DNA from: an uncultured Acidobacteriaceae bacterium
GTDB lineage: Bacteria > Acidobacteriota > Terriglobia > Terriglobales > Acidobacteriaceae
Direction: 5' to 3'
Length of the DNA stretch: 64,000 bases
Assembly (NCBI GenBank): GCA_903828675.1
Contig: CAIKND010000048.1
Span: 1 to 64,000, forward strand
Shown here one piece after another: positions 453 to 28,496 of the stretch (positions are counted from its first letter, which is position 1; every line of letters begins with the position of its first letter). A program made the translations under genes and the position numbers. The notes under the pieces are model-generated. The model did not search any database, was not told where the DNA came from, and saw only the letters and a list, made by a program, of their open reading frames with translations.

Positions 453-1316
453 TCATATCGTCTTTTTCAACAGACTTCCCCAGTAATATCCCTTGTGATT
501 CTCCGAGTAAAACGTGTTGTAGTATTTTGCATTTGCATTTGCCTTGGCATAAGCCTCGCATGTAACGTAAACATCCAACTGAGGCTCCGATGCATCCACA
601 ACTATTGTCCCAGCTTGATTGTTGGTAATAATGGGAAGTTTCCTGTTGCTCCATGCCGAATAGGCTAAATGACCTGACTTTGCGTTACCGAAAAAAGTCA
701 AACGTGGATTGACGACATCAAGAAACTCCCAATCGCGGTCAGAATGGCGACCGTGGTGTGGAGCAACGAGAATGTCAACATCAGTAACATCTTTCACGTG
801 GTCGTTGAGAATGTGCTCCCAAGTCGCATCATGAGAGTCTCCAGCAAAAAGAATCTTGTAACCGCACGTTAGATACAAAATCACGTATGAGGAGTCATTG
901 TAATCTTCATTCTCACATGCAGCAGCGACAAGCTGCTTGGTGGGAGCCAAGACGTGTAGGCCGTCCCCGCCACCTTGATTGTTATCATTCTGGTTGTAAT
1001 ACTGCCCTCGCGCCCCAGAGTGAAGTGCCAAACGCTTTGGGGAGTTCTCCAACTTTCCGTCTCTTAGTTTCTTGTAAAACTTCCAGTCGTCTTCGCAGAA
1101 GCCTCCGTCGTTACCGCCCCCAAATTCCTTCTCTTCATCATTGTCTGTATCCCAAAAGTTTGTCGGCTGGAACGCATCAAAAAATGCCTTGATTCCGTCC
1201 ATGTGGTCCATGTCTGGGTGGGTCAGAATGAACCGGAACACGTCCGTATGTCCATGGAGTCCCATGTAAGAGATTGGGTTGACGGGATACTTCTTCTGGT
1301 TGAAATTGCCCTGCAC
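453..1316 (-). pseudogene. MBL-fold metallo-hydrolase, 5'-truncated
   Basis: The 287-residue frame carries the metallo-beta-lactamase metal motif as HPDMDHMDG near residue 33, a later D in LFAGDSHD and the final histidine in LVAPHHGRHSD, as in ComEC/Rec2-type hydrolases. The family normally begins with about 50-80 residues forming the first beta strands (an N-V-G-x-G-D type segment) before the HxHxDH box. Here the frame starts only about 30 residues before the box, has no ATG (GTG at 1316), and upstream hits a stop at 1368. The break coincides with the start of the divergent integrase at about 1310-1340, so the 5' end was probably lost by recombination there. Active product unlikely but not excluded. 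Confidence 0.7.
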
Positions 1317-2856
1317 TGCTCTTTCCTGTGCCGCAGCCGTCTTCCGTCCTTTCCTTGAAGGCCGTCGTTATACAGAGAATAGTGTCCGAACCTACGTTGA
1401 CAACCAGCGCGCCCTCCTGAAGGCCGCCATGTGTCATGGCTGGTGCCCCGATGGCAATGCGACTGCAGCCTGGAAGCCTCTGTTGGAGCTGGCCGTCGAG
1501 GAACATCTGACAGATGTTACTCGTCATTTCTCCCGCTCCACTAAGTCGCCGAATGAAGTCACGAAGGAGTCTGTAGATTGCTGGGGAGAAGCCAGAATTC
1601 GTGATGGACTGATGTTCACGACAGTGGCTCAGAAAAAGAATGAGTTCTGGCGCCTTCTGAAGAAGACGGGGTGGATCGCCAAAACGCCAGACCATTTGTT
1701 GAAGTTCGAGTACTTCGGTATCCCCCTGAAGGACCTCCCGCCGCGCTTGCGGACCGAAGCCGAGGCGCTCCTGAAATGGAAGGTCGCTCCGTTTGCTACG
1801 AATCGCCCGAAGAAGGGAAAGATCCGGCCCATAACGGCGAAGGGACTTCGGTTGACCATTAGCCAGCTCGCTAGTTACGTGATTAATGTATGCGGCGGCG
1901 CCCCAGAATCCTTGAAGGATCTGTTCCAGAAAAGCAACATCGAGGGCTTCATTGAGTGGGCGTTCAACGAGCGTCATGTCAAGGGCCGCACCATCCAATT
2001 GGCCATCGCCCGCATCGCGGCATGCGTGAAGTATCACCCCGCGTATGCTGACCGCGACTGGTCCTGGCTGAAACCCCTGACTGACAGCATCCCGCTCGAA
2101 GACGACTCTGAGATCAAGAAAAGGAAGGCGGCCAAGTATATCGATTACGACGAGTTTGAGGCCATCCCAACGCAGATCCGCGGCTTCCGCGAGTCCTACG
2201 AGAAGAAGCGGCACAAAAGCCAAATCCGCGTGGCTCAACTTGTCGAGGAGGAGTTTATCTTTCGCTGGTTTCTGGCATTTCCTTGGCGGCAGCGCAACCT
2301 GCGCGAGCTGCGCATCGGCGGCTCGTCGCCGAATCTCTTCAAGGGCCGAATTCCCTCACTCAGCGACATCGACAAGCCGGCATGGATCGTCGAGGAGGAA
2401 GCCCAGAACCCCGGCGCCGAGTTCTGGATGATCAGCTTCGCACCCGCCGAAACCAAGACCAACATCACTGTCGATCTGCTCCTTCCGCGTGCGCTCGTCG
2501 AACCGCTCGAAGAGTATATGGCTGTGTGGCGTCCGCTCCTGCTGAACGGCAAGAATCCTATCACGCTGTTCGTCACGCCCCGCGGCAAGGCGATGCGCTC
2601 GGATCAGGTTGGCAAGGTGATCGGTCACTGGTCGAAGACCTTCGCCAGCAAGCGCACGACGCCCCACATGATCCGCGATTCGGTTGCCTACAAGTGGTTG
2701 AAGACGCACCCCAAGGATTACTTGACCTTGTCGAAAATCCTCTGGCACAAGAACGTGCAGACCACCATCCGCATCTACGGCGCTCGCTTCAACGAGTCGT
2801 CCGGCATGTGCGCCATGGAAGCCTGGCGCGACCTGCGCGCCGCCGGCCAGAACTAG
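1279..2856 (+). CDS. Tyrosine recombinase / phage integrase 1
   Basis: Site-specific recombinase of the lambda-integrase family. Counted from the TTG at 1279, the catalytic set is Arg339 (WRQRNLRELR), His463-x-x-Arg466 (PHMIRD), His490 (ILWHKN) and the nucleophile Tyr500 (IRIYG). The N-terminal half has a SAM-like DNA-binding region (LEGRRYTENSVRTY). The first ~20 codons are antisense to the truncated MBL gene and do not look like integrase, so the true start is probably further in (for example the ATG near 1429) or the native 5' end is missing. A small HTH gene and a second integrase follow on the same strand, which suggests stacked remnants of mobile elements. Confidence 0.85.
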   Translation: MTGYFFWLKLPCTALSCAAAVFRPFLEGRRYTENSVRTYVDNQRALLKAAMCHGWCPDGNATAAWKPLLELAVEEHLTDVTRHFSRSTKSPNEVTKESVDCWGEARIRDGLMFTTVAQKKNEFWRLLKKTGWIAKTPDHLLKFEYFGIPLKDLPPRLRTEAEALLKWKVAPFATNRPKKGKIRPITAKGLRLTISQLASYVINVCGGAPESLKDLFQKSNIEGFIEWAFNERHVKGRTIQLAIARIAACVKYHPAYADRDWSWLKPLTDSIPLEDDSEIKKRKAAKYIDYDEFEAIPTQIRGFRESYEKKRHKSQIRVAQLVEEEFIFRWFLAFPWRQRNLRELRIGGSSPNLFKGRIPSLSDIDKPAWIVEEEAQNPGAEFWMISFAPAETKTNITVDLLLPRALVEPLEEYMAVWRPLLLNGKNPITLFVTPRGKAMRSDQVGKVIGHWSKTFASKRTTPHMIRDSVAYKWLKTHPKDYLTLSKILWHKNVQTTIRIYGARFNESSGMCAMEAWRDLRAAGQN

Positions 2857-3006
2857 CCCCATTTTTACAGACGCATATTCACCAACACTTATCTGTTGTT
2901 TGACTGACCGAGCGAATTCTGCGCGTTATTCCGCCAGAAGGATCGCGACGACCATGTTCGCCGGCCAACGAGAATGCTGCCAGCCAAGAAGTATGAAGAG
3001 GAAACC

Positions 3007-3222
3007 ATGAAACAGAATGAACATTTGGAAATAGACCCAAGGCCCCTTGACGTCAGTGAATTGTCCGCCTACTTTCGCTGCGATCCGGAAACCGTCAAGC
3101 GCCATGCACGTAGCGGAAAACTTCCTGGCTTCAAGTTTGGGAAGTCGTGGTTCTTCCGTCTCCGGGACATCAACGGCATGATCGATGCCGCTATCCACTC
3201 GGCCGACCCGGCACAGGCATGA
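3007..3222 (+). CDS. Excisionase-like helix-turn-helix protein, 71 aa
   Basis: Small DNA-binding protein of the HTH_17/MerR-like excisionase type: LDVSELSAYFRCDPETVKRHARSG is the HTH and KLPGFKFGKSWFFRLRDI the wing. The start at 3007 is preferred over an upstream ATG at 2974 because GAAGAGGAAA precedes it at proper spacing. Its stop overlaps the ATG of the integrase at 3219 (ATGA), so the two are translationally coupled. Such pairs usually control the direction of integrase action; that role here is inferred from context. Confidence 0.7.
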   Translation: MKQNEHLEIDPRPLDVSELSAYFRCDPETVKRHARSGKLPGFKFGKSWFFRLRDINGMIDAAIHSADPAQA

Positions 3223-6200
3223 CGGCGACGCAGGATCGCCGTCTGCGCTACCAGAATGGCACTCTGGAGCGCATGGCCAGAAAGAACGGTCCCGATATCT
3301 GGACGTACCGCTGGGTAGAGCGGACCGACGGTAAACGGCGCAGGGTCCAACTCGGAACCGTAAAAGAGCTGCGGACCATGCAGGCAGTCAAACAAGCTGC
3401 AGATGGCTATCGCCTCACTGCAAACCGCGAAAGCGATGTCGTACGGAATGTCACCATGTTGGCAGTTCTCGACCGGTACGAGCGAGAATATCTGACTCCG
3501 TACGCGGAACGGCCTTTGGGCGCCGTCGACGATGGAAAGATCAGTGTGCAAACTGCGAAATCCTACCGATCATACATCCGCTGTTGGATTAGACCGCGCT
3601 GGGAGAAATATCCGATCGCCGAGTTCACGAAGCCTCCGCTAAGGTCAGCCATGGAGACATGGCTGGCAGACTTGTGCGAGTCAGAAGAGCTGGCGCCGAA
3701 GACAGTCCGCAGCATCGGTTCACTGATGGGATTGATCTTCAAGCGCGTTGTAAAGTGGGGCTACCTTGCGAGTAACCCGATGGACTTCGTCGACCTGCCC
3801 GAAGGCTCAACGCGCAGGAAAGAGAAGCCGCGATCTTTGACGCCGGCGGAGTTTCTGGCGCTGTTGAAGCTCTTCGAACCCCGTGAGAGGCTTGCTGTGG
3901 AAATTGCAGGATGGCTGGGCACACGGCGCAGCGAAGGGTTCGGCTTGAAATGGCAGGACCTTGATCTCGATGGCTGCGTGGTCACATTCTGTCAGGGCTT
4001 CGTCTCCGGCCGTATCTCGAATCTGAAGACGGAGGCGTCGCGCACCGACATTAGCCTTCCGGAAGTGGTGAGGGATTCCCTGGTGGCTTGGAAGAAGTTG
4101 ACGCCATACTCGGCGCCGGAAGATTGGGTGTTCGCCAGCCCTGCGACCCATGGGCAGCGCCCCATGTGGCCCGACTCAATGCTGGCTGACTACATTCGTC
4201 CGATTGCAGAAAAAGGGGGCTTTGGTCATATTGGCTGGCACACCTTCCGGCACAGCCTCACATCCTGGGGCAAGCAGGTGCTGACTCTTGAGGAGACGAA
4301 GGAACTGGTCCGTCATGCGAACATTCAAACCACAAGCGACATCTACGGCGGCCTCTCGCTGGACGCCAAGCGCGCAGCGCAGAGCCGCCCCGCGTTGTGG
4401 TCGCTGGAAGAACGGAACATGTATAAGCTGCTGACCGAAGTGCAGGTGGACGGCAAGGCGGTTGATCGCTACGAAACGGCCTTCGGCATTCGCTCCGTCC
4501 AGTTTGATGCGCAACAGGGATTCCTGCTGAACGGCGCGCCGGTAAAGCTGAAGGGCACCTGCAACCACCAGGATCACGCCGGAATCGGCGTTGCATTGCC
4601 CGACGCAGTGCAGGTCTACCGCGTTCGCAAGCTGCAGGAGATGGGCTGCAACTCGATCCGCACCTCGCACAACCCGCCCACGCCGGAGCTGCTTGATGTC
4701 TGCGACCAGTTAGGCATGCTGGTGATGGACGAGACGCGCATGATGTCGTCCAATCAGGAGGGCCTGAGTCAGTTTGCAGATCTCGTGCGCCGCGATCGCA
4801 ATCATCCCAGCGTCTTCATGTGGTCGTTGGGCAATGAGGAATCCACGGCTACCAACGCCAAAGGCGCTAACATCGTGACCGCCATGCAGCAGGTTGCCAC
4901 GCGTCACGACGGATCGCGCCCCACAACGATCGACGGCATGATCAACGGCGAGGCAGCGGGCAGCGGTACCGGAGGCCTGGCGGTTTGCGATGTGATTGGA
5001 TATCACTATGCCGACCAGCAGGCCGAGGCGTTCCACAAAGCGCATCCTGAAAAGCTGGTGCTGGGTACTGAGACCGTGAGCGCCGTCTGCACGCGCGGCA
5101 TTTACATTACCGACAAATCCAAAGGCTTCGTAAGCTCCTACGATCCCTACACCACCTCGGGCCGCGCCTCCGCCGAGGGATGGTGGAGGTTCTGCAACAC
5201 CCGCCCGTGGCTCGGGGGCGGTTACGTGTGGACCGGCTTCGACTACCGTGGCGAGCCCTCGCCCAACGGCTGGCCCAACATCAGTTCGCAATACGGCATC
5301 ATCGACATGTGCGGCTTTCCCAAGGATTCGTTCTTCTACTACCAGTCCTGGTGGACCGGCAAGCCGGTGCTGCATCTGTTTCCGCACTGGAACTGGCCCG
5401 GCTACGAGGGCAAGAAGATCGCCGTCTGGGTCTACTCCAACCTGGACAAGGTTGAGCTGTTCCTGAATGGCCAAAGCCTGGGCGCAAAGGATGTGCAGAA
5501 AGATTCGCACGTCTCCTGGGTGGTGGAGTATGCGCCCGGCTCCCTGGAAGCGCGCGGATCGAAGGATGGCAAGCAGGTGATGACGAAGCGCCGCGACACC
5601 ACCGGTCCCGCCGCCAAATTGGTGCTTCGCCCCGATCGCGACTCGTTGTTGGCCGACGGCGAAGATGTGGCCATGTTTGCTGTCGAGGTGCAGGATGCAA
5701 GCGGGCGCACCGTCCCTGTCACCGATCATCTCGTCTCGTTCCGCGTAACGGGCCCCGCGCGGCTGATCGGCGTAGGCAACGGAGACCCCACCGACCAATC
5801 GCCCGACAAAGCCACCTCGCGCAAGGCGTTCAGCGGTTATTGCATGGCTCTGGTGCAGACCAACAAGGCGACCGGAACCATCACCGTCGAAGCCACATCT
5901 GCGGACTTGACCTCCGCCTCTGCGACGGTCACCAGCAATCAGGTAGAATTGCGCCCGCAAGTCGCCCTCTGGCAGCGGCCCGTTCCCAAGGGGACTGGCA
6001 TAACAGGCCTTTGGCTGGCAGCGCTGGAACCCGGCGGTGGCATGGCGGCTTCATTCCTCGGCTCGCCGCGAATCTTCACGTTGACACAGCAGGACGGAAA
6101 GCTGACCGGAACCGTCGAAGGCCCGGGCGGTTGGTTCGGCGGCGACGATGCGCCTGTTGTGATCGTTGACGGCGTCGTCCAAGGCGATCGTGTGGCCTTC

Positions 6201-6467
6201 AAGTCCGGCATCAATGTCTTCGAAGGCAAAGTCAAAGGAGATCAGATTGAGCTTCAGCGCTCCGTCAAGATACCGTTCAGCATGCCCACGCCCCAGAAGG
6301 AGGACCCCAACGGGCCAGCCATCGGCCCGGCGCCTGACGGTTCCGATCCTTCAATCGACTTCTCCGATTTTGGAAATGTCAGCCAGTCGATGCCGGTGGT
6401 GTTGACCCGTCTGGTGGAGTTCGTTCATGCGTCAGGGGAAAAGGCGTCGGAGGACATGCAATCGTAA
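3219..6467 (+). CDS. Chimera: tyrosine integrase fused in frame to a 5'-truncated GH2 glycosidase
   Basis: One open frame of 1082 residues joins two unrelated proteins. Residues 1-392 are a tyrosine recombinase with Arg236 (GTRRSEG), His341-x-x-Arg344 (WHTFRHS), His366 (LVRHANIQTT) and Tyr376 (DIYGG). From about residue 393 (LWSLEERNMYKL, near base 4395) the sequence is glycoside hydrolase family 2: end of the Ig-like domain, TIM barrel with acid/base Glu540 (MWSLGNEE) and nucleophile Glu618 (LGTETVSA), then DUF4982-like and GH2 C-terminal domains and a beta-rich tail (residues ~910-1010). The GH2 N-terminal jelly-roll and most of the Ig-like domain are missing, and there is no signal peptide. 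The integrase lacks only its last ~15-20 residues. The start at 3219 overlaps the HTH gene by ATGA. This looks like a deletion or insertion joint that happens to be in frame. Integrase activity is possible; glycosidase activity is doubtful. Confidence 0.85.
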   Translation: MTATQDRRLRYQNGTLERMARKNGPDIWTYRWVERTDGKRRRVQLGTVKELRTMQAVKQAADGYRLTANRESDVVRNVTMLAVLDRYEREYLTPYAERPLGAVDDGKISVQTAKSYRSYIRCWIRPRWEKYPIAEFTKPPLRSAMETWLADLCESEELAPKTVRSIGSLMGLIFKRVVKWGYLASNPMDFVDLPEGSTRRKEKPRSLTPAEFLALLKLFEPRERLAVEIAGWLGTRRSEGFGLKWQDLDLDGCVVTFCQGFVSGRISNLKTEASRTDISLPEVVRDSLVAWKKLTPYSAPEDWVFASPATHGQRPMWPDSMLADYIRPIAEKGGFGHIGWHTFRHSLTSWGKQVLTLEETKELVRHANIQTTSDIYGGLSLDAKRAAQSRPALWSLEERNMYKLLTEVQVDGKAVDRYETAFGIRSVQFDAQQGFLLNGAPVKLKGTCNHQDHAGIGVALPDAVQVYRVRKLQEMGCNSIRTSHNPPTPELLDVCDQLGMLVMDETRMMSSNQEGLSQFADLVRRDRNHPSVFMWSLGNEESTATNAKGANIVTAMQQVATRHDGSRPTTIDGMINGEAAGSGTGGLAVCDVIGYHYADQQAEAFHKAHPEKLVLGTETVSAVCTRGIYITDKSKGFVSSYDPYTTSGRASAEGWWRFCNTRPWLGGGYVWTGFDYRGEPSPNGWPNISSQYGIIDMCGFPKDSFFYYQSWWTGKPVLHLFPHWNWPGYEGKKIAVWVYSNLDKVELFLNGQSLGAKDVQKDSHVSWVVEYAPGSLEARGSKDGKQVMTKRRDTTGPAAKLVLRPDRDSLLADGEDVAMFAVEVQDASGRTVPVTDHLVSFRVTGPARLIGVGNGDPTDQSPDKATSRKAFSGYCMALVQTNKATGTITVEATSADLTSASATVTSNQVELRPQVALWQRPVPKGTGITGLWLAALEPGGGMAASFLGSPRIFTLTQQDGKLTGTVEGPGGWFGGDDAPVVIVDGVVQGDRVAFKSGINVFEGKVKGDQIELQRSVKIPFSMPTPQKEDPNGPAIGPAPDGSDPSIDFSDFGNVSQSMPVVLTRLVEFVHASGEKASEDMQS

Positions 6468-6524: not shown

Positions 6525-6578
6525 GTTTGGTTGCGGGGGCTGGATTTGAACCAGCGACCTTTGGGTTATGAGCCCAAC
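6525..6578. repeat. attL: 54-bp copy of the 3' part of the tRNA-fMet gene
   Basis: This 54-base stretch is identical to 30486-30539 in direct orientation. In the right-hand copy it is the 3' part of the initiator tRNA gene, from the base just before the anticodon stem through CCA plus three bases. At the left copy the 5' half of the tRNA is absent (sequence diverges right after GAGCCCAAC). This is the signature of integrase-mediated insertion into a tRNA gene and marks the left end of the island. Confidence 0.92.
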
Positions 6579-7339
6579 TGAAAAATGCTAAGTCCTATTG
6601 ATTTCAATGCCTTTAGCTCATGCAAAAGTGGCAAAAACCAATCAAATTCACCCAGTTTTGGACCCATGTTGGACCCTGGCGTAGCCAGGGCAGATTTAAA
6701 GGTAGCGATTCCAAAAAGCGAATCCCGTCGTGATCTGAGCGGAATTCCTGGCCGTGTCGCAGAAGGCCTTCGTCGTCTCCACCTTCGCCAGACACTCAGC
6801 GAGGACGTAGATCCCTGGGTTCTGTGGGCTCATGCACACTAAAGTGATCGAAAGACATATCTGCCTGGCCAATACTTTCGGACGAAATTGCGAGATTGAA
6901 CCAACGAGATCCCTGGCTCACACCTCGGTTAGACCGCAGCCGGGTACACGGACTTTGCGTTTGCTAGCAGATTTGAGCCATTAGCAAACTCGACAAAATG
7001 GATTGATTTGTCGAGTTTGCGTCCCAAGCGGCGAATTGGAAGGGAATTGACGATTTGTGATGATGCAAGGAATCCCAGACCCTGGGGCGTATTTCAGGAC
7101 CGATCCTTTGAAGGGGGCCAACATTCAATGAGCGCATTGTTCTGTTGGCAACAGTTGACACTCGCTTCGCAGGGAAATCCCTGCACACTGGCCGATTCAA
7201 CGGGAGTGATATCGTTCCGGGCATCAGAGCGAATCCCATCTTCTGTCATGCCCGACGACCAAATGCAAGGGACCGGGGGACCCTCAGTTGCATATCTGCC
7301 GCTGAGATCGTGGCCACAAGCCCATCGCTTGCATCGAAA
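6579..7339. other. Left-end non-coding region of the island, with putative integrase arm sites and a perfect palindrome
   Basis: No convincing gene is seen in these 760 bases. At 6659-6678 there is GGACCCATGTTGGACCCTGG, which matches 30414-30433 near the other island end at 18 of 20 bases and may be an integrase arm-type site. CCCTGGCGTAGCCAGGG at 6672-6688 is a short palindrome. At 6984-7020 a perfect 14-bp inverted repeat (GCAAACTCGACAAA, 9-base loop) has no T-run, so it may be an operator or protein-binding site rather than a terminator. Confidence 0.5.
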
Positions 7340-8341
7340 TCACATTGACCACTGGAATTCGTAAATCCACGCGTAGGTAGTGTATTTCGCGGGCTGTGGA
7401 TGACCTGTCGTCCCGAACGTCTTTTCGCCCCGGCGCTCGCCGCAACGGCAAGTCAGCCGAAAGCCATCGCCGAACACCACGGGATCCTCGTCGTGGTATC
7501 GATAGGCCGAGAAGGAATGAGTCGTTTCATCTTTATGAGTCAAACCGGCTTGGGGAAGGTGATAGAGACCGCGATTGAAGTAATAGGTTCCGAGAAAGTA
7601 GTCTTCCAACCCGGAGGAAAGGAACTGCGGCTTCTTGTCTGAGCCGAAGTACGCCCGCATCTGTCCTTCCAGAAATTCGAAGTTTGTGCTTTGGGCGGCA
7701 ATCGTCACCTGAAAGAGCAGCCCGGCGCCTACCCCGTGCGCGAGTTCGAACTCTTCCAGTGGCTGAACTTCCCGATCGACAACCTTGTGCAGCTTTAGCC
7801 GGGCAGTTGAGGGCAGAGAAAACCCGCACACTTGGGCCACGCCGTTCTCCAGCCCGCGGATGATCCACCACAGGACCGTGTCCCTCGGAACTCCGGGCGG
7901 CAATTCTGCGGTAACTCGAATGCTTCGGACATATGGAATGCGATGGTTGAAGTAAACTCCGCTGGGCTCACCCGTCACACCCCCGAAACGATTGCCCCAC
8001 GGAGCTGCCGGGTCCTGGAACCCGACGCCAACACCCAGACCCAGTTCCATGTCGATCGACGGAACAGCCTCTCCGTCGACGTACACCCGGATTCTGAGTC
8101 TCTTGTAGTCTTTGAACGCGCCTCCAAACCACATGTGATCCAGATACCCCGACCCTGCCTGCCAAGCCAACTGCGCCTCTGGGGCTTGCAGAAAGGGCTG
8201 CTCTTCCTTCCCGGTGCAGGTAAAAGTGCGCAGGCCCGGCGGCAACGGGGAATGATCGCTCCGAACCGGAGGTTCGCCGGTAAGTGCCGTCGAAGTAAGC
8301 GGCCATCCAAGAACACTTGTCGCAAAAACTCGTCGATTCAT
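7340..8341 (-). CDS. DUF2961-domain protein (GH172-like glycosidase), secreted
   Basis: The 333-residue protein matches the DUF2961 family, now partly classed as GH172 (enzymes acting on fructofuranosyl or D-arabinofuranosyl linkages). Visible landmarks are the N-terminal signal MNRRVFATSVLGWPL, the beta-sandwich motif YLDHMWFGG, and FLSSGLEDYFLGTYYFNRG, whose E-D pair corresponds to the conserved acidic site. The ATG at 8341 is chosen because GGAAGGA lies six bases upstream; the ATG at 8347 would abut it. It is the first cargo gene of the island, on the same strand as the regulator at 8598-9923. The exact substrate cannot be read from the sequence. Confidence 0.8.
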   Translation of the reverse strand: MNRRVFATSVLGWPLTSTALTGEPPVRSDHSPLPPGLRTFTCTGKEEQPFLQAPEAQLAWQAGSGYLDHMWFGGAFKDYKRLRIRVYVDGEAVPSIDMELGLGVGVGFQDPAAPWGNRFGGVTGEPSGVYFNHRIPYVRSIRVTAELPPGVPRDTVLWWIIRGLENGVAQVCGFSLPSTARLKLHKVVDREVQPLEEFELAHGVGAGLLFQVTIAAQSTNFEFLEGQMRAYFGSDKKPQFLSSGLEDYFLGTYYFNRGLYHLPQAGLTHKDETTHSFSAYRYHDEDPVVFGDGFRLTCRCGERRGEKTFGTTGHPQPAKYTTYAWIYEFQWSM

Positions 8342-8597
8342 CTGCATTCCTTCCGCGCGACGCGATGAGCCAATTATCGCCGAGTCACTCGTCTACCAGA
8401 GATTTGTACCGAGATGCTGGCATGACGACCGAGATCTCACGTTCCGTCGTCGAGATGGGGTCCAAGGAGAATTCCGGAGCCTGGAGCGTTTGGGAATCGA
8501 TCCCCGAAAAGAGCCTAACTGTCATGCAGCGTGTGCTTTGGCCTATTGGCGACAGTTGAGGGTTACTTCCTGATGGCCGTGATACAACCGAGGAAAG

Positions 8598-9923
8598 CTA
8601 CCAGAAGTGGGTTGCGACAATTTGCGGCGATGAGGGGGTTGTTCCGTTGATCGAGACGCGGATCACAGCCTGAAGGTTCTTCGTCTCCCAATCGATGGGC
8701 GCTTTTTTCACCACTTCGGCAAAGGAAGCGGGATCGAAGAAGACGCAGGCCGCAGCCTCTGTTCCAAAGGTCGTGATACCACCGGCGAGCAGAACGATCT
8801 GACCGCTGGCAGCGTCGAAGAGCCGGCACAGAATTCCGTAGTCCTGATCTGCGTATCCATCGGGCTTTGGATTAACCGCCTGCCAAACCTGCTTTGTCTG
8901 CTTGTCGACGAGCACCAGCCCATCGACCAGTCCCCGGCTTGTGAGCGACTGTCTGTCCCCGCCCTGATTATTGACGAAAGTGAAGCGCAGGTCGCGCGTC
9001 ATTTCGAGTGTCCAGATGGAGGAGAAACCACCCAGGATGAGACTGGGCTGTTCGCGCAACTGGGCATAGGTCAGGTCGGCTCCGAAGCGAAGGTGGTATG
9101 GATAGTTGTGCTTGGTCAGGAAGTCGGCCGCCCGCCTGAGTGCAGCCGCAGGCCCAATGCCGACCCGATCGCTCAACGCTCCGTCGGACCGTTCCGACAG
9201 GATGGGAATGAAGACAAGAAGGGGAGTCTTTGTGGCAAAAATCGGCTTCCACAGCAAATCGACCGGGGGGCGTTGGAAATGAACCAGAGGGACAATCGAC
9301 GCCGCGCCCAGTATGCCAAGCGATCCGCCGACTATCCAGGCGAACCGGCGCCTGTCCAACGGCTTCCTGGCGGCGTTTTCTTGACTGCTCCGGGGCTGGT
9401 TCTTCGTCGGCACCCGCTCGATAACGTAAATCCGGGGAAGATAACCGCCGAGCGGCATCTCGACGAGGTAGGGGCTTGAGGGTGCGGAATCGTAATACTC
9501 AGCGAGCCGCTTTCTTACCTCGCGTGCCTTGACGCGCACCAGAGAGTCTTCGCCGGGTTCGAAGTTGAGGCCCTTGCCAAAGACCTCATGGGCGATGTTG
9601 CGCTCGTTAATCGAGTCACCATGACCGTCGACTGTCTCTCGAACGATATAGCGTAGAAAGTCCTGACTGCGCCTGCTGGAGTTGAACGAGGGGCTTTTCA
9701 GCACCTCGTCCAGATGCTCCAATAAAGCATTCTTCGAAGCTTCATCAGCCAAGTTTGCCGGAACCTTGTTCAGAGAGACAAGCTGAGTAGCATCCTGTCC
9801 TGCCGAAGCGCTATTCCCCACCGCAGGCACATGAGCGGGCGTGGGAGGATGTGCTGTGTCGGACAGCGACTGTATTCCACCCCGTCCAATCTCCTCTTGC
9901 ACGGACGTGTGCTCTTTGCTCAT
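8598..9923 (-). CDS. Membrane-anchored protein with an N-terminal winged-helix-like domain, probable regulator
   Basis: The N-terminal third has the pattern LLEHLDEVLKSPSFNSSRRS ... FLRYIVRETVDG ... EVFGKG ... DSLVRVKAREVRKRLAEYY ... VEMPLGGYLPRI, a conserved acidobacterial domain often found beside TonB-dependent receptors and sometimes labelled adenylate-cyclase-like or wHTH. A single membrane helix follows (IVGGSLGILGAASIVPLVHF, about residue 200), then a ~230-residue C-terminal domain that may sense a ligand. It is divergent from the TonB receptor across a 500-bp gap. Role as a glycan-responsive regulator is inference from this arrangement; no enzyme motif is seen. SD AAAGGA precedes the ATG. 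Confidence 0.65.
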   Translation of the reverse strand: MSKEHTSVQEEIGRGGIQSLSDTAHPPTPAHVPAVGNSASAGQDATQLVSLNKVPANLADEASKNALLEHLDEVLKSPSFNSSRRSQDFLRYIVRETVDGHGDSINERNIAHEVFGKGLNFEPGEDSLVRVKAREVRKRLAEYYDSAPSSPYLVEMPLGGYLPRIYVIERVPTKNQPRSSQENAARKPLDRRRFAWIVGGSLGILGAASIVPLVHFQRPPVDLLWKPIFATKTPLLVFIPILSERSDGALSDRVGIGPAAALRRAADFLTKHNYPYHLRFGADLTYAQLREQPSLILGGFSSIWTLEMTRDLRFTFVNNQGGDRQSLTSRGLVDGLVLVDKQTKQVWQAVNPKPDGYADQDYGILCRLFDAASGQIVLLAGGITTFGTEAAACVFFDPASFAEVVKKAPIDWETKNLQAVIRVSINGTTPSSPQIVATHFW

Positions 9924-10423
9924 CCTGATTTTTCCTTTAGCGCCAGCCTACCACCTACGGGCACGGGACACGAGGACTTGTCCCATGCCTGTGATACTTC
10001 ATTGCCGCTAGTTTGCCTCGACCACGCGATCAAGAACGACTGGTTAATCGACCCTGGCTCGCTGGGCTCTTTTTAAAGGGCGTATAACAGCCTGTTACAC
10101 GCCCCATCACAATCCAGGGAGCATGACCTATCTGTTTGATAAGACAGCCTTCTTCTGACAAGCAATCGAGATAACGGTTATTCACGCATGTGAAACTTGA
10201 CTTCACACTCGCTCAAGGCAGAGCATCCGCGACAGATTTCCACCGATCGGAAGTTGGCTGCAATTTCAGTCGAAGCGGGCGGCGAAGAACCATTCGATCC
10301 GGCTTGCCAAAGCTTTCCGACAGACAAGAACCAGACGACGCCGAAAAGCACATTCGGATATAGCCGTTTCCGATTGCAAAAACCAAGGCGTTCAAAACTT
10401 CGGAGGAACTGAAAGGGCTGAAG
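9924..10423. promoter_or_regulatory. Divergent regulatory region between the regulator and the TonB receptor, with a dyad
   Basis: Five hundred bases without a credible gene separate two divergent genes. At 10082-10100 GTATAACAG-C-CTGTTACAC forms a 9-bp dyad with one mismatch and a one-base centre, the shape of an operator. A purine-rich leader with GGAGG (about 10403) and AAAGGG (10411-10416) precedes the receptor ATG. Promoter boxes are not assigned. Confidence 0.4.
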
Positions 10424-13400
10424 ATGAAAACGTTTCAACAGATCAGACGCAAACTGACCACCGGCTTCCGTAACAAATCCGCCTCCACTATCGGAACAAG
10501 CGGCCGCCTGACCTTCCGACCCGGACCAGGCGGAATCGCCTGGCGGTGTCTTGCCTTTCTCGCCCTCCTCTTGGCCTTTACGGTCGCCGCGCGCGCTCAG
10601 GTGGATGCAGGATCGGTCCAGGGGCAGGCAGTCGATGCCACAGGTGCCGTGATCCCAAATGTACTCATCACCCTGAGCAATGAAAACACGGGTGTCGCAG
10701 CCTCGATGCACACCGATGGCAAGGGCGAATTCAACTTCTCTCCCGTGCGCGTCGGCATTTACACCATCACGGCAGAGATGCAAGGGTTTAGACGCGAAGT
10801 GCGGCAGCACGTCCACGTCGAAGTACAGCAGCAACTCGCTATCCCTCTCACCCTCCAGGCTGGCTCCACGCAGGAGTCCGTTGAAGTCAATGCGGAATCG
10901 GTTCCGCTGCTGGAGACACAGAACGCCTCGGTGGGTCAGGGCGTCAGCGCCCAGCAAATCAACAATCTGCCACTCAACGGACGTAACCCCTACTTCCTGG
11001 CCCAAACGGCTGCCGGCGTCACATTTGCGCAAAACGGATCCAGGGGCGAGAACGGAAACGGGCGCTTTGTCGCCAACGGCCTCCGCGCCACACAGAACGA
11101 CTACCTGCTCGATGAAATCGACAACAACTCCTCGATTATCTCCATACAGAACGGCAAAGACTTCGTGATCCAGACCTCCGTCGATGCACTGGCCGACTTC
11201 AAAATCCAGACCAATAACTACAATGCGGAATTCGGAAGAGCTGCGGGCGCTGTCCTGAATGCAACCGTGAAATCTGGAACGAACGGGTTACATGGCGACG
11301 TATGGGAATTTCTTAGAAATGATGTTCTCGACGCGAACGACTATTTTCTCAATCATGCCGGAAAACCCCGCAACAAGTTCAAGCGCAATCAGTTCGGCTT
11401 CACGTTAGGTGGGCCCGTCCTGCTTCCGCACATCTACGACGGTCGCAACAAGACTTTCTTCTTCGGTGACTATGAGGGAACCCGATCGAGCCAAGGGAAC
11501 GCGATCACAGGCACCGTTCCTACCGCTCTTGAACGGAGCAGCGGCTTCACAAACTTCAGTGAACTGATCAGCCTGCAAAGCGGCAACAACAAGGCCGACG
11601 CCGCAGGAAACGTCTATCCGCTGGGCACCATTCTTGACCCGGCAACTACAACTCCTTTCGGGTCGAGTTACGTGCGAACACCCGTCCCGGGAAACATCCT
11701 CCCGGCGAGCCGAATCGATGCGAACGCTGTTGCCCTGCTGAATCTTCTGCCACCGCCTACCTATCCCACGCTGTTGAACAACTACATCATCGCCCCCACG
11801 AACGTGGATACCTACAATAACTTCGATATCCGTATCGACCAGGTCATCGGCGGAAAGGATTACCTCTTTGGCCGCTACAGCTACAACGCCCACACGCAGA
11901 ATCACCCTGGCATCTTCACGGACTACCAGAATGGCTATGCGGACGGTGGGAATTCTTCTTCTCTGAGTCAATTCTTTGACCGCGCACAAAACGTGTCGAT
12001 CGGCGAAACGCACACCTTTAGTCCTAGAATAGTCAACGATCTGCGCATCGGCCTGAATCGCGAGCACGTGCTCTGGCTCCAGCCCAACGGCAATACACTC
12101 GGCGTTCCAGCCAAATTCGGAATTCTGGGCGTGCCGCAGTATCCTACCAACGGCGGCCTACCACAGTTCTTTGTGGGTTCTCTTAACTCGTTCGGTTCAT
12201 TCAACTCCCTGCCCAGCAACAAGTACGGCACCACACCCCAACTCAACGACGACTTGACAATTGTTCGCGGTGCACACACGATCAAGGTCGGCGTTGAGCA
12301 GCAATTCATCCGGTTTCCCTACACACAGCCGCCCCAGTCGCGCGGTTCCTTCACCTTCGCGGGCACGTACACCTCAGTCTATGGACAGACGGACAGCACA
12401 ACCGGCATCGCGCAAATGCTGCTCAATCCGACATCCACCTCCCAGCTGGCCGGTGCGAATGCGATTTCAATGTCCACTTTCGTCGAACACGGCCTCACCC
12501 ACAAATACACCGGTGCCTATGCCCAGGACGATTGGCGCGTGACCCACAGGCTAACCCTCAACCTGGGCTTGCGCTACGACTTCTACGACTTTATGCACGA
12601 GCAGCATGACAATATCGCCAATTTCATTCCCGGCCCTGGGCGCGTGGGCGGTACCTTCCTGGCTACCCAGAAGGTGTACAGTCAGTTGCCTTCGAGTTTC
12701 CTGACCGCACTGTCGAACGAAGGGATTACAGCCCAGTCGGTTGGCCAAGGCTCGCTGGTCAACGTGCAGCACTTGAACTTCGCGCCGCGCATTGGCTTCG
12801 CCTACCAGGCAACCAATCGCCTTGTGGTTCGCGGCGGCTACGGCATCTTCTACGGAGGTCTCGAGAACATCGGCGGGAGCCCGCTGGTCAGCGAGAACTT
12901 CCCTATCGAGTACAACATTGCACGCACAGCTTCCAACGCAGCCACACCGCTGGCAGCCGACAACTCGCTCGGCCTGCTTGAAACTAGCTTCGTAAATCTT
13001 GCGGTCACACCATCGACAGTGAACCCCGCAGGCCTGGCACTGATCGGCTTCCAAAAGAATGCCAAGACATCCTATTCGGAAGGCTACAACCTCTCACTCC
13101 AGTATCAGTTGAACCAGTCTATGGCATTGACAGCGGACTACGTAGGCGATTCAACGCGCCACATCGAAACTGTTCTCAATCTCAACTCGGTTGGCGAGCT
13201 GTTGCCGCCCACAGCGACAGCCACGCCCTACCTTCCTTACCAATACACCTCGGTTTCCGGGAACAATCTGACGTTGACGGGCGCAAGCAGCGAATTCAAT
13301 GCTGGGCAGATCACACTTGAGCAGCGGCACGCCCACGGCCTGACGCTGTTGACCAACTTTGCCTGGCAGAAAACCCTGACCGACGCCCGCGACCCACTCG

Positions 13401-14053
13401 AAGGAACCACGGGAAGCTACCGCGCTCCATTCCTTCCGAATTTTGGGATCCAGGCAGACAAGGAGCACGCTGACTTCGACGTGAAACGTATCTTCCACTT
13501 CAGCGGAACCTACGAACTGCCTTTTGGCGCCGGCAGAACTTTCGGCGCGCATGCACATGGTGTCGAGCAGGCGACTTTGGGCGGCTGGAGCACAAATTTC
13601 ATAGCCACGGCACAGGACGGCCAGCCCTTCACGGTCGCCTGCTCGGTGACAACCGCTGCTGGCGCTGGCTGCAATGCGCTGCTGGTTTCCGGCCAGAGCC
13701 CTTACGCGAACAGAAGCGTTGCGCATTTTGTAAGCGCAGCGGCGTTTGCCAACCCCGCTGCCGTCACTGCCGTCGGTCAGAGCGATTACTCGCCCCTGGG
13801 CGGCCGAGCGACGCAGGTCAGCGGCCCCCCATTCCGCCGCATAGACTTGGCCTTCTTCAAGCGCTTCGACTTCACTGAGCGCTTCTACTCGGAGTTCCGC
13901 GCGGAGCTGTTTAACATCACCAACACCGCCAACTTCGCTAACCCATCAAGCTTGAATTTCTCCAACACCACCAGTTTCGGACAGATCACGGCGACCCGCG
14001 ACTCACCCAACGACCCGCGAGAGGTTCAATTTGCGCTGAAGATTTACTGGTAA
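10424..14053 (+). CDS. TonB-dependent receptor, Oar-like, with carboxypeptidase-regulatory-like domain
   Basis: Outer-membrane importer of 1209 residues, probably for oligosaccharides released by the neighbouring enzymes. After a long N-terminus (hydrophobic segment CLAFLALLLAFTVAARAQ near residues 43-61), a carboxypeptidase-regulatory-like beta-sandwich begins (GSVQGQAVDATGAVIPNV), then a plug domain with the family landmark INNLPLNGRNPYFLAQTAAGV and FVANGLRATQNDYLLD, then a barrel ending in ALKIYW, an aromatic C-terminus typical of BamA substrates. No separate SusD-like gene is present, as is usual in Acidobacteria. The unusually long pre-signal region (~40 residues) may mean a later start, but no better SD was seen. 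Confidence 0.92.
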   Translation: MKTFQQIRRKLTTGFRNKSASTIGTSGRLTFRPGPGGIAWRCLAFLALLLAFTVAARAQVDAGSVQGQAVDATGAVIPNVLITLSNENTGVAASMHTDGKGEFNFSPVRVGIYTITAEMQGFRREVRQHVHVEVQQQLAIPLTLQAGSTQESVEVNAESVPLLETQNASVGQGVSAQQINNLPLNGRNPYFLAQTAAGVTFAQNGSRGENGNGRFVANGLRATQNDYLLDEIDNNSSIISIQNGKDFVIQTSVDALADFKIQTNNYNAEFGRAAGAVLNATVKSGTNGLHGDVWEFLRNDVLDANDYFLNHAGKPRNKFKRNQFGFTLGGPVLLPHIYDGRNKTFFFGDYEGTRSSQGNAITGTVPTALERSSGFTNFSELISLQSGNNKADAAGNVYPLGTILDPATTTPFGSSYVRTPVPGNILPASRIDANAVALLNLLPPPTYPTLLNNYIIAPTNVDTYNNFDIRIDQVIGGKDYLFGRYSYNAHTQNHPGIFTDYQNGYADGGNSSSLSQFFDRAQNVSIGETHTFSPRIVNDLRIGLNREHVLWLQPNGNTLGVPAKFGILGVPQYPTNGGLPQFFVGSLNSFGSFNSLPSNKYGTTPQLNDDLTIVRGAHTIKVGVEQQFIRFPYTQPPQSRGSFTFAGTYTSVYGQTDSTTGIAQMLLNPTSTSQLAGANAISMSTFVEHGLTHKYTGAYAQDDWRVTHRLTLNLGLRYDFYDFMHEQHDNIANFIPGPGRVGGTFLATQKVYSQLPSSFLTALSNEGITAQSVGQGSLVNVQHLNFAPRIGFAYQATNRLVVRGGYGIFYGGLENIGGSPLVSENFPIEYNIARTASNAATPLAADNSLGLLETSFVNLAVTPSTVNPAGLALIGFQKNAKTSYSEGYNLSLQYQLNQSMALTADYVGDSTRHIETVLNLNSVGELLPPTATATPYLPYQYTSVSGNNLTLTGASSEFNAGQITLEQRHAHGLTLLTNFAWQKTLTDARDPLEGTTGSYRAPFLPNFGIQADKEHADFDVKRIFHFSGTYELPFGAGRTFGAHAHGVEQATLGGWSTNFIATAQDGQPFTVACSVTTAAGAGCNALLVSGQSPYANRSVAHFVSAAAFANPAAVTAVGQSDYSPLGGRATQVSGPPFRRIDLAFFKRFDFTERFYSEFRAELFNITNTANFANPSSLNFSNTTSFGQITATRDSPNDPREVQFALKIYW

Positions 14054-14105
14054 TCGAACAGTGACATAGGCGCTGCCCAAATCCGGGCAGGTGGCGGACT
14101 TTCAG

Positions 14106-14144
14106 CGACGCGGAGACGATATAGAAGAATCTTTCTCCGCGTCG
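14106..14144 (+). terminator. Rho-independent terminator of the TonB-receptor gene
   Basis: Perfect 11-bp inverted repeat (CGACGCGGAGA / TCTCCGCGTCG, 17-base loop) followed directly by ATTTTCTTT, 52 bases after the receptor stop codon. It separates the receptor from the sulfatase and rhamnosidase genes. Confidence 0.65.
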
Positions 14145-14193
14145 ATTTTCTTTGGGCAAAAACTATAGACTGGCGCAGACAGGTGGAAATTGT

Positions 14194-15666
14194 ATGAAAC
14201 ACAATCGCAGGCAGTTTCTCGGTGATTTGGCCGGAATCGCCGGATTGACGATGCTTCCCGGTACTCTGAAAGCTGCGGCAAATGCTGCTACGAAGCCGAA
14301 TATCGTTCTGTTTCTCATTGACGATATGGGCTGGGGCGACTTGGGTTGCTACGGCAATACCTTCAACGAGACCCCTAATATTGACCGGCTGGCGCAGGAC
14401 GGTGTGCGTTTTACCAATGCCTATGCCGGCGCGCCTGTCTGCTCACCAAGCCGTACGGCGATTCTGACCGGCAAGGCGCCAGCTCGGGTGCACCTGACCC
14501 AGTGGATTCCAGGAACGATCTATCCGCACAAGAAGCTAATCGAGGCACCTACTCCACTTCACTTGGACTCAAACATCCCAACACTCGCGGAATTGCTGAA
14601 AAGCGCAGGCTACCAGACCGCAGCCATCGGTAAGTGGCACCTGGGCGGCGAGGGCTACCTACCCGAGAACTTCGGCTTCGACGTGAACATTGCCGGCGAC
14701 GATCATGGCCATCCTCCCTCCTACTTCGGGCCCTTCAGTTTTCATAATCTCTCCGGCTACTCAAAAGACGACTACCTTACTGATGTGCTTACCGATCGCA
14801 TGGAGGCTCACATATGTGAGGTCGCACCCAAAGGCCCCTTCTTCCTCTACATGGCCGAGTATTCAGTGCATATGCCGCTAGAGGCCAAGCTGGCGATGAT
14901 TGAAAAATACAAGCGGAAGAATGGCGGCAAGGACGAGCCCGACCCGGTCTACGCTGCGATGATCGAGAGTGCCGACACGGCACTAGGCCGGCTGCGCGCG
15001 GCATTGGAACGCGCCGGAGTCGCAGACAACACCATCATTTTGCTCACATCCGACAATGGCGGCGTCGGCTTCCAGGGGCGCAGCTTACATCGTATCTCCG
15101 GCAACGGCGGGCTGCACGGCGGCAAGGGATATCTCTACGAGGGAGGTATCCGCGAGCCGATGCTTGTGCATTGGCCGGGCGTAACGCGACCGGGAAGCCT
15201 GTGCACAACACCGGTGATCGGCATGGACTTTCTGCCTACGCTGGCGCGGGCAGCTGGCGCAAGCACCATTCCGCTACCTTGCGACGGGATGGATATCAGC
15301 GGATTACTGCGCGGTGAGAATACGCTGCAGCGCGAGACACTCTATTGGCACTACCCGCACTACAGCGACCAGGGTGGTACACCCTCTGGGGCCATCCGCG
15401 AAGGGGATTGGAAGCTGATTGAGTTCTTCGAAGATGACCACATCGAGCTTTACAACCTCGCACTCGATCCAGGAGAACAGTACGACTTTGCTTCCAACTT
15501 CGCCCCTAAAGCCGAAGATCTGCGAGCCAAATTGCACCAATGGCGAAGGAGCGTGGATGCTGTCATGCCGCAACATAACCCCGACTCCAATCCTCGGCTG
15601 GCCGAGTTGCGCCAAGGCCCCGCAGGGTGCAGTTGGCTGCCCTCCGCCGCCTGCCGCGAGGACTGA
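14194..15666 (+). CDS. Secreted sulfatase (arylsulfatase type, formylglycine-dependent)
   Basis: The 490-residue protein removes sulfate esters, probably from a polysaccharide. The S1 sulfatase signature is clear: metal ligands in NIVLFLIDDMGWGDLGCYGN, Cys83 in the maturation motif CSPSRTAILTGK (C-x-P-x-R, converted to formylglycine), IGKWHLGG, and TSDNGG. The twin-arginine-type leader RRQFLGDLAGIAGL fits export of a folded protein. The start at 14194 is chosen because GGTGGAAA precedes it and because it places the leader at the N-terminus; the longer frame from 14152 adds no domain. No formylglycine-generating enzyme is in the window, so it must be supplied elsewhere. It is followed by the GH78 gene after 57 bases. 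Confidence 0.9.
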   Translation: MKHNRRQFLGDLAGIAGLTMLPGTLKAAANAATKPNIVLFLIDDMGWGDLGCYGNTFNETPNIDRLAQDGVRFTNAYAGAPVCSPSRTAILTGKAPARVHLTQWIPGTIYPHKKLIEAPTPLHLDSNIPTLAELLKSAGYQTAAIGKWHLGGEGYLPENFGFDVNIAGDDHGHPPSYFGPFSFHNLSGYSKDDYLTDVLTDRMEAHICEVAPKGPFFLYMAEYSVHMPLEAKLAMIEKYKRKNGGKDEPDPVYAAMIESADTALGRLRAALERAGVADNTIILLTSDNGGVGFQGRSLHRISGNGGLHGGKGYLYEGGIREPMLVHWPGVTRPGSLCTTPVIGMDFLPTLARAAGASTIPLPCDGMDISGLLRGENTLQRETLYWHYPHYSDQGGTPSGAIREGDWKLIEFFEDDHIELYNLALDPGEQYDFASNFAPKAEDLRAKLHQWRRSVDAVMPQHNPDSNPRLAELRQGPAGCSWLPSAACRED

Positions 15667-15723
15667 CCAAACATCTTCTCGGGTAAGGAATTCGGCTGGA
15701 ACCACAGTGAGGAATGGCCCGTG

Positions 15724-18618: not shown

Positions 18619-19096
18619 TTCTCGGTGGCTACCCAGAATCAACTTTAGTGTTTTGTTAACGATTGCAAGGGGGAGTTCCCATCGAGAGGAAATTCCAATG
18701 TGACGAACCTAGCAGTGCTGTCAGGCAGTGTGCGGGCTTCGTAATCCACCTCTCTACTTTTGGATATCTAGATACCATGTCAGTCTGTAGTTCACGACTT
18801 TAAGTAATGTGTCCAAGCCTGTTGCCTCTTGCCGCCGGTCCGCTTGGCGCGACCAGCTTAGCGGATCAGCAATGGGAAAAAGTCGCTTCGCCGAGGGGAC
18901 TTCCGGCGTTACCCTAAGGTACTCACCGATGCAGGATAGGCCTTCGCAAGTCGGCAAGGGTCAGCCGATTTGCTCGGCGCAATAACCTCAACTGCCGCCA
19001 ACGAGCCCTCCCGGCGGCATCAGCGTCGACCAGACTCTACAAAGTGGTTCCTATTGTCGAGAGATGAGCAAAATCAGGAAGTCAGGGTCTGCGGCT
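18619..19096. other. Non-coding stretch inside the island
   Basis: Nothing convincing is seen: no ORF with a natural composition, no hairpin followed by T-run, no RNA gene. It separates the sugar-degradation genes from the inner mobile module. Confidence 0.4.
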
Positions 19097-19351
19097 CTAG
19101 GTGGAGGGAATGGAATCGAAAAGATCTTGCTGGCGGTCAGGGCCCGGATCCGATTCTCCTTTGCGTTGAGTCGGAATCGGTCCAAAGGCGCTCATCAGAC
19201 GCAAGGTTTGCCGATTGCTCTCAAAAATAGCCTGCAGTTCGAGACAGCGGGGACAACCACCCTTGATGGCGCCGATTCCGTCGGCCTCGGGATTAAACAT
19301 GGGATGGCGCGAACACTTGCCTTGCCATTTCGTTTTTTCAATCTTCAGCAT
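19097..19351 (-). CDS. Small zinc-ribbon-like protein, 84 aa
   Basis: The sequence has two metal-binding half-sites, C-x2-HP in GKCSRHPMFNPEADG and C-P-x-C in GGCPRCLELQAIF, followed by LRLMSAFGPIP. The spacing and the G-x-GAIKGGCPRC phrase look like the small CxxH/CPxC proteins seen on mobile elements in soil bacteria, from memory and not verified. No strong SD is visible, so the start is uncertain. The composition is far from a shadow frame. Function unknown; nucleic-acid binding is the usual guess for such ribbons. Confidence 0.5.
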   Translation of the reverse strand: MLKIEKTKWQGKCSRHPMFNPEADGIGAIKGGCPRCLELQAIFESNRQTLRLMSAFGPIPTQRKGESDPGPDRQQDLFDSIPST

Positions 19352-19361
19352 TTCTAGGCAA

Positions 19362-19637
19362 TCATAACGCCATTGAACTCGGCCAGAAGCTCCCTAACCT
19401 CACTCTAGCGGCCTGGTTGTTGGGGTGGTAAACCCAGGTGATTAGATCCAATGCTCTTAGGATGAGATCGGCAAGTGGCGACGCGCTCACATCGTCGGGG
19501 AGAACGCTCTGCCCGTCATCAGCATCCTCGACGCAAACGACCTTCTTAAAATTAATCGTCCGTGGGACATCGACCGAGGAAATAGAATTGGGCCGAAGTT
19601 CTGCTACGCCACTGGCTTTTGTTGCTGAACGAGGCAC
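19362..19637 (-). CDS. Doubtful small hypothetical protein, 91 aa
   Basis: The frame lies 10 bases upstream of the zinc-ribbon gene on the same strand. Its middle (INFKKVVCVEDADDGQSVLP and ASPLADLILRALDLITW) reads like a real protein, but the ends do not, and no SD is clear. It may be a decayed gene. No family recognised. Confidence 0.25.
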   Translation of the reverse strand: MPRSATKASGVAELRPNSISSVDVPRTINFKKVVCVEDADDGQSVLPDDVSASPLADLILRALDLITWVYHPNNQAARVRLGSFWPSSMAL

Positions 19638-19639
19638 CC

Positions 19640-20260: not shown

Positions 20261-20440
20261 ATGCGCATGAAGAAGCTGATAGGAAATACGGCCATCCTGG
20301 TTGCCGGCTCTATCTTGATGATCGGCGGCATGATTGCCGTGGCTGTTCTCTTCCTCGGCGCCACACTGATTGTCCTGCTTCGTAAGCTGAGTCCACGCTA
20401 CGCTCGAGCAAGCCTGAACGGAACAACAAGAACCACGTAG
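20261..20440 (+). CDS. Small hydrophobic membrane protein, 59 aa
   Basis: ATG at 20261 opens a 59-codon frame: MRMKKLIGNTAILVAGS, then a continuous hydrophobic run to LIVLL (about residues 11-43), then RKLSPRYARASLNG. The positive residues flank one long or two short membrane helices. The hydrophobic pattern is unlikely in random frame, but the SD is weak. Function unknown. Confidence 0.4.
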   Translation: MRMKKLIGNTAILVAGSILMIGGMIAVAVLFLGATLIVLLRKLSPRYARASLNGTTRTT

Positions 20441-28494: not shown

Positions 28495-28496
28495 CG

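What the first reader, a model, noticed from the sequence alone, without database searches (positions are those of the whole stretch)
3219..6467. In-frame chimera of a tyrosine integrase and a decapitated GH2 glycosidase
The joint near 4389-4397 keeps the frame and the integrase catalytic residues through Tyr376, then continues with GH2 from its Ig-like domain. Either a rare functional fusion or a clean recombination scar. Transcription from the integrase promoter could express GH2 sequence without a signal peptide.
Basis: seen in the sequence. Interest (0 to 1): 0.7.

Follow-up and report, generated by a model that had tools for sequence, protein, structure and literature searches.

The report
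Glycosidase fragment inside an island integrase
A DNA-integrating enzyme gene at the edge of a mobile gene island in an acidobacterium has had a piece of a sugar-cutting enzyme gene dropped into its last helix without breaking the reading frame; it looks like a one-off recombination scar that probably disables the integrase.

Summary
The single open frame 3219-6467 is real, but it is not "integrase followed by GH2". It is an integrase gene with a GH2 piece inserted. The integrase body (3219-4382) keeps its catalytic residues. A 2,023-bp GH2 piece (4383-6405) follows, without start, signal peptide, sugar-binding domain or stop. Then the integrase's own last 18 residues, stop and downstream DNA resume (6406 on), as in the closest relatives. 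Both joints keep the frame. The insertion point lies inside the terminal helix, which in studied tyrosine recombinases makes subunit contacts. In 30 of 30 related integrases read there, a 7-40-residue tail follows this point directly. Of 397 genomes of the order, only this one covers the joint end to end. The closest GH2 DNA is a broken copy in the same genome (92% over 304 bp), so a close relative of that gene is the likely donor. The insert shows no more amino-acid change than intact orthologues, so it is either recent or still selected. Best reading: an illegitimate-recombination scar beside a tRNA-Met-targeted island carrying polysaccharide genes. The integrase is probably dead or impaired, and the GH2 piece probably inert. 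Modest interest.

The parts
2974..3222 (+). Small HTH_17 gene, possibly excisionase-like; its stop overlaps the integrase ATG (ATGA)
   Evidence: Pfam PF12728 E=6.8e-10; NCBIfam 'excise' only 17.5 bits, below its 28.8 cut-off; ORF list; sequence
3219..4382 (+). Integrase body: tyrosine recombinase up to residue Q388, catalytic residues present
   Evidence: PF00589 E=1.4e-9; 93% to G172 (aa 197-390), 70% to G177; invariant columns
4383..6405 (+). Inserted GH2 (GalA-like beta-galactosidase) piece: last part of the Ig-like domain, TIM barrel, C-terminal domains; no start, no stop
   Evidence: Pfam; NCBIfam GalA 755.8 bits, below the 900 cut-off; joints
6406..6467 (+). Integrase tail (rest of the terminal helix) and stop codon, displaced by the insert
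   Evidence: 83% DNA identity to G172 over 84 alignment columns (6406-6488) including CTGTCCTCAACTGTCC; 70% to G177 over 81 columns
6529..6572 (-). Attachment-site copy: 3' part of tRNA-Met(CAU), just after the integrase end
   Evidence: 44-bp exact repeat of 30490-30533; same arrangement after the G177 integrase
30489..30565 (-). Complete tRNA-Met(CAU), the target gene of the island array
   Evidence: ARAGORN
6573..30488 (.). Neighbouring island B with carbohydrate cargo (DUF2961, SusC-like outer-membrane protein, sulfatase, GH78, GH88, heparinase-like lyase, resolvase) and its own integrase 29061-30404
1279..2856 (+). Second, distant tyrosine-recombinase gene upstream of the chimera
   Evidence: PF00589 E=1e-7

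Best explanation
A tRNA-Met-targeting island integrase suffered a one-off illegitimate recombination. A 2,023-bp piece of a GH2 beta-galactosidase gene, from a gene close to the one whose broken copy survives on contig C139, was captured into the codons of the integrase's terminal helix, with loss of at most about one base and no target-site duplication. By luck of strand and phase (about 1 in 18, my estimate) the frame stayed open through both joints. Shown: the three-part anatomy, both joints in the assembly, the catalytic residues, the integrase tail after the insert, the attachment site, and uniqueness among the genomes searched. Inferred: the mechanism (end-joining or template switch), the donor, and that the product is an integrase unable to complete recombination carrying a cytoplasmic, probably inactive, GH2 body.
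For: Integrase tail and downstream DNA resume after the insert, matching G172 and G177. In 30 of 30 related integrases read at this point, a 7-40 aa tail follows directly (one of the 30, G172, is itself 5'-truncated). In the model of the G177 integrase (mean pLDDT 85.4) residues 376-403 form the terminal helix, and the insertion point maps near residue 384-385, inside it. Deleting this helix in XerA blocked recombination but not half-site cleavage (PMC3646895; abstract and section 22 read). GH2 orthologues run on to their own stop (KRSER* or similar) where the insert breaks off, and the C139 and C225 genes begin with about 316-317 residues that the insert lacks. Longest exact match between the two 20-bp flanks 2 bp, and between one 60-bp terminus and the reverse complement of the other 6 bp. 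Among 397 genomes of the order only the own genome covers an 84-aa query across the left joint from end to end. None of 63 loci from the named-genome scan matches both the integrase body and the GH2 body: matches start at residue 347 or later, or end by 390. Two other close copies of this integrase are broken remnants: G172 (5' truncated, abutting a sulfatase fragment) and G026 (aa 1-85 only).
Against: The frame is fully open, and the insert shows no relaxation against intact genes: dN/dS 0.06-0.16 against seven orthologues or paralogues, many with saturated dS; 19 unique residues against 14-30 in four intact orthologues. A scar as old as the split from the C139 copy (dS 0.16 over 101 codons) should show decay, so the insertion must be recent or the insert kept. 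Over those 101 codons dN/dS against C139 is higher, 0.36, but C139 is itself broken. No reads were available to confirm either joint.
Confidence: 0.75

Rival explanations
1. A functional two-part protein: the integrase tolerates the insert in its last helix, the tail re-docks, and the fusion is kept by selection.
For: Open frame through both joints; integrase catalytic residues present and both GH2 glutamate motifs aligned with 4ypj; no excess of amino-acid changes in the insert. Engineered zinc-finger insertions into recombinases exist (PMC11631766, title and start of abstract in the search listing only).
Against: Insertion splits the helix that XerA needs for complete recombination; GH2 lacks its sugar-binding domain and export signal; no second example seen; the constraint may wholly predate a recent insertion.
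Confidence: 0.07
2. One reading: a terminal fusion in which the integrase promoter expresses the C-terminal part of a GH2 gene.
For: Left joint is in frame and GH2 domains follow.
Against: The last 18 codons and the downstream DNA belong to the integrase, not GH2.
Confidence: 0.03
3. Assembly or library chimera.
For: Draft genome of 241 contigs; no reads available.
Against: Three contig pairs share stretches of exactly 141 bp at a contig end (C48/C129; C139/C194 and C139/C158), as in a de Bruijn assembly with k near 141, so 141-base words across each joint were presumably seen (inference). At the joints the parents share only a few bases, and there is no N in 2900-6700. Two independent false joints, both in frame and restoring the same gene, are unlikely.
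Confidence: 0.1
4. Insertion by a transposase, or by site-specific recombination at a site within the integrase gene.
For: A clean 2.0-kb insertion.
Against: No target duplication and no convincing terminal inverted repeat; Pfam finds only GH2-type domains in the insert, apart from a sub-threshold Invasin_D3 match; the element's likely attachment site is the tRNA repeat at 6529.
Confidence: 0.03

Closest known systems
Tyrosine integrases of tRNA-targeted genomic islands (PF00589); nearest G177 and G172 copies
   Same: Catalytic residues and tail; the G177 DNA match begins inside the upstream HTH gene at 3073; tRNA-Met 3' repeat after the G177 gene (in G172 the nearest repeat lies about 12 kb away)
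   Different: 674 codons inserted in the terminal helix here
GH2 beta-galactosidase GalA (NF041462); solved relative 4ypj
   Same: TIM barrel, glutamate motifs aligned, C-terminal domain
   Different: Lacks leader, sugar-binding domain, first part of the Ig-like domain and own stop; scores 755.8 against a 900-bit cut-off
XerA lacking its alphaN helix (PMC3646895)
   Same: The last helix is altered; a block of complete recombination is predicted by analogy
   Different: There a clean deletion made in the laboratory; here a natural insertion that leaves the helix's end far downstream

Membership tests
Tyrosine recombinase / phage integrase | Catalytic R-K-H-R-H-Y set | tested here: met
   R236, K270, H341, R344, H366, Y376 in invariant columns; roles recalled
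Tyrosine recombinase / phage integrase | Uninterrupted terminal helix and tail after the tyrosine | tested here: not met
   Split by 674 codons; 30 of 30 relatives read have the tail directly
Tyrosine recombinase / phage integrase | Recombination activity | not testable with these tools
   needs an excision assay
GH2 beta-galactosidase GalA | Catalytic TIM barrel with acid/base and nucleophile Glu | tested here: met
   NEE and GTETVSA align with 4ypj NEI and GSETSSA; catalytic roles recalled
GH2 beta-galactosidase GalA | N-terminal sugar-binding domain (PF02837) | tested here: not met
   No PF02837 match in the chimera at E<=0.01; present in the C139 copy
GH2 beta-galactosidase GalA | NCBIfam GalA cut-off (900 bits) | tested here: not met
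   755.8 bits
GH2 beta-galactosidase GalA | Export signal | tested here: not met
   Chimera starts with the integrase; C139 and C225 genes start with an RR-type leader (MKTFSRRDV / MKTLSRRDL), judged by eye, no predictor run
tRNA-integrated genomic island | Displaced tRNA 3' fragment repeated at the island end, next to the integrase | tested here: met
   44-bp exact repeats 6529-6572 and 30490-30533; complete tRNA at 30489-30565
tRNA-integrated genomic island | Both ends of the chimera-bearing element | tested here: inconclusive
   Contig starts at window base 1; only two exact repeat copies in the genome, both in this contig, plus one 3-mismatch copy on C190

The most novel reading that the evidence does not exclude
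The insertion is functional: the integrase's switch helix has been interrupted by a glycosidase module that could couple island excision to sugar binding or hold the enzyme in a dormant state, and the whole frame is kept by selection.
Probability: 0.04. Interest if true: 0.8.

Novelty: new member of a known kind. Interest (0 to 1): 0.3.

Why it matters
As a scar, it shows how an island integrase next to polysaccharide cargo can be disabled without leaving a stop codon, so that gene calling would report a 1,082-residue "fusion enzyme". If functional, it would be a natural test of whether a tyrosine recombinase tolerates a large domain in its subunit-swapping helix.

Tried and rejected
Rejected: a terminal fusion (the tail after the insert is integrase); element insertion into a GH2 gene (integrase sequence flanks the GH2 piece on both sides); direct cut-and-paste from today's C139 (the shared flanks differ by about 8% and C139 still holds both end pieces); transposition. 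C139's GH2 copy has its own internal deletion, apparently between short CAAGGCG repeats (seen by comparing it with the window), so it is a broken relative and not the missing other half.

Led nowhere: viral contigs (2 stretches matched a pattern, none a relative; 0 exact matches of the left joint); plasmids (10 records matched the joint query, 0 cover 80% of it); phages (228 records match the integrase, every one under 60% identity). Alignments A2 and A4, which mixed integrase and GH2 rows, misplaced the integrase rows and were not used. I ran no structure prediction of the chimera itself.

Literature: six searches. Among the papers listed (10-15 of up to 112 found, 7 of 7) no title or abstract start describes a natural integrase-GH2 fusion; the rest of the hits were not seen, and asked about other points. 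Only listings were seen, except PMC3646895 (abstract, section 22) and PMC3174227 (listing plus 12 passages).

Rows left out of counts: one search read 30 integrase loci; L092 (a stop in the stretch), L057-L061 (second fetches of G177, G067, G172, G121, G243) and the own-genome matches L011, L012, L014-L016 were not put in. Several locus pairs appear to be the same record fetched twice (L027/L093, L029/L128 and L030/L095 give identical values; L088/L148 and L091/L149 share contig lengths); searches used one of each.

Full report
WHAT IS THERE. The open frame 3219-6467 on the + strand is intact. Pfam finds Phage_integrase at residues 206-376, then the end of the GH2 Ig-like domain, the GH2 TIM barrel, DUF4982 and the GH2 C-terminal domain 5. 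Aligned with 11 related integrases (12 rows), R236, K270, H341, R344, H366 and Y376 lie in invariant columns (I recall these as the catalytic set). The gene starts at an ATGA overlap with a small HTH_17 gene, which is only weakly excisionase-like (17.5 bits, cut-off 28.8).

THE SECOND JOINT. The nearest integrases change the picture. In G172 (93% over aa 197-390) and G177 (70%) the protein runs AQSR or AQQR, then at once LVNFVHGAAEKSSVEGNL* or LVEFVREEAKKSSDQAVSA*, and both genes are followed by CTGTCCTCAACTGTCC. The window has this ending, LVEFVHASGEKASEDMQS* and CTGTCCTCAACTGTCC, but only at 6406-6488, after 2.0 kb of GH2 (83% DNA identity to G172 over 84 columns). GH2 orthologues instead continue to their own stop (KRSER* and similar). 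So the GH2 piece, 4383-6405, is an insertion within the integrase gene, in frame on both sides, with loss of at most about one base. The two 20-bp flanks share no more than 2 bp, and one 60-bp end matches the reverse complement of the other over no more than 6 bp. Thirty integrase loci were read at this point: all 30 have a tail of 7-40 residues directly after it; loci not put into that count are named under Tried and rejected.

WHERE IT STRIKES. A model of the G177 integrase (404 aa, 24 sequences, mean pLDDT 85.4, pTM 0.67) ends in one helix, residues 376-403; the insertion point maps near residues 384-385, inside it. By position after the tyrosine I take this for the alphaN helix (inference). 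In XerA, deleting alphaN left half-site cleavage but abolished recombination (PMC3646895, abstract and section 22). The insert leaves the first part of the helix in place and moves the rest about 674 residues away, so I expect the chimera to be unable to complete recombination, though perhaps still able to bind and cut. This is untested.

THE GH2 PIECE. It contains the TIM barrel with both glutamate motifs aligned to the solved enzyme 4ypj. It lacks the first part of the Ig-like domain, the leader seen in the C139 and C225 genes and the sugar-binding domain found in the C139 copy. It scores 755.8 bits against the GalA model, cut-off 900. In the own genome the relatives include an open-frame paralogue at C225 (67%), a 48-49% relative at C142 and a broken close copy at C139. 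C139 is the closest DNA found: 92% over 78 bp and 92% over 226 bp. Over the 226-bp part the other loci compared (11 ids, some the same record twice) give 71-82%, over the 70-194 bp that aligned; over the 78-bp part one of them, L120, also reaches 92%. C139 itself carries an internal deletion of about 1.7 kb, apparently between CAAGGCG repeats, and shifts frame there. The donor was therefore probably a gene close to the ancestor of C139's (inference); direct cut-and-paste from today's C139 does not fit the divergence.

AGE AND CONSTRAINT. Against seven orthologues or paralogues the insert has dN/dS 0.06-0.16; the intact genes among themselves give 0.04-0.13 where computable, and dS is saturated in many pairs. 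Against C139 dS is 0.16, dN 0.058 and dN/dS 0.36 over 101 codons; that higher ratio could reflect decay in either copy, and C139 is broken. Counting residues unique to one of five sequences over 671 codons, the insert has 19 and four intact orthologues have 14, 25, 19 and 30. About 3.5% of point changes in the insert would create stops, and none has. So the piece either entered recently, after evolving as a working gene elsewhere, or has been kept. These data cannot separate the two.

SURROUNDINGS. The integrase end is followed by a 44-bp copy of the 3' end of tRNA-Met(CAU) at 6529-6572, repeated exactly at 30490-30533 within the complete tRNA gene. The stretch between is a second island with DUF2961, a SusC-like outer-membrane protein, a sulfatase, GH78, GH88, a heparinase-like lyase, a resolvase and its own integrase. 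The element with the chimera runs off the contig at window base 1, where C48 shares its first 141 bp with C129. Two other close copies of this integrase are remnants: in G172 the 5' part is missing and the C-terminal part of a sulfatase gene lies there on the other strand, near an arabinofuranosidase gene, and in G026 only aa 1-85 remain. Breakage of close copies of this integrase is thus seen more than once, in two of the three cases against a carbohydrate gene; insertion of a gene piece is seen once.

UNIQUENESS AND REALITY. An 84-residue query across the left joint was covered end to end only in the own genome among 397 genomes of the order (matches at E <= 1e-12). The longest other partial matches there, G408 16-83 at 54% and G012 17-84 at 51%, lie in roughly 1,000-residue frames like the other GH2 matches, and G177 2-50 is an integrase running a few residues past the joint. 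None of 63 loci from the named-genome scan matches both halves: matches start at residue 347 or later, or end by residue 390. The listed matches of the full chimera in 60 relatives show no second genome with both halves in one match, but that list was cut off. One search used only residues 1-394 and says nothing on spanning. No reads were available. Three contig pairs share exactly 141 bp, which suggests a de Bruijn assembly with long words, and the parents share only a few bases at the joints, so a graph error is unlikely but not excluded.

VERDICT. A real (as far as the assembly shows), singular, in-frame insertion scar in an island integrase; probably non-functional; modest interest. The chance of same strand and right phase at both ends is about 1 in 18 (my estimate), so the open frame alone does not demand selection.

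Noticed in passing
window 6529-30565: A 24-kb island with polysaccharide-degradation cargo flanked by exact 44-bp tRNA-Met 3'-end repeats, in tandem with the element that carries the chimera.
   Followed up: partly
L087 (G000:C139) 2456-3747: GH2 gene with an internal deletion of about 1.7 kb, apparently between CAAGGCG repeats, that shifts the frame; its surviving flanks are the closest relatives found of the window's insert.
   Followed up: yes
L087 1-141: The first 141 bases of contig C139 recur over 113 bases or more (98-100%) in 11 other contigs of the genome, partly at contig ends: a dispersed repeat of unknown kind.
   Followed up: no
L158 (G000:C190:22699-22742): A diverged third copy (3 mismatches) of the tRNA-Met attachment repeat, with a weak match to an integrase fragment nearby: possibly a further island remnant.
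   Followed up: no
L088 4441-5590: In G172 the 93%-identical integrase is truncated and abuts the C-terminal part of a sulfatase gene on the opposite strand.
   Followed up: partly
window 1279-2856: A second, distant tyrosine-recombinase gene upstream of the chimera.
   Followed up: no
G375:C48:57658-57783: A 69% match to the integrase end in a 94-residue open frame, perhaps another remnant of this integrase.
   Followed up: no
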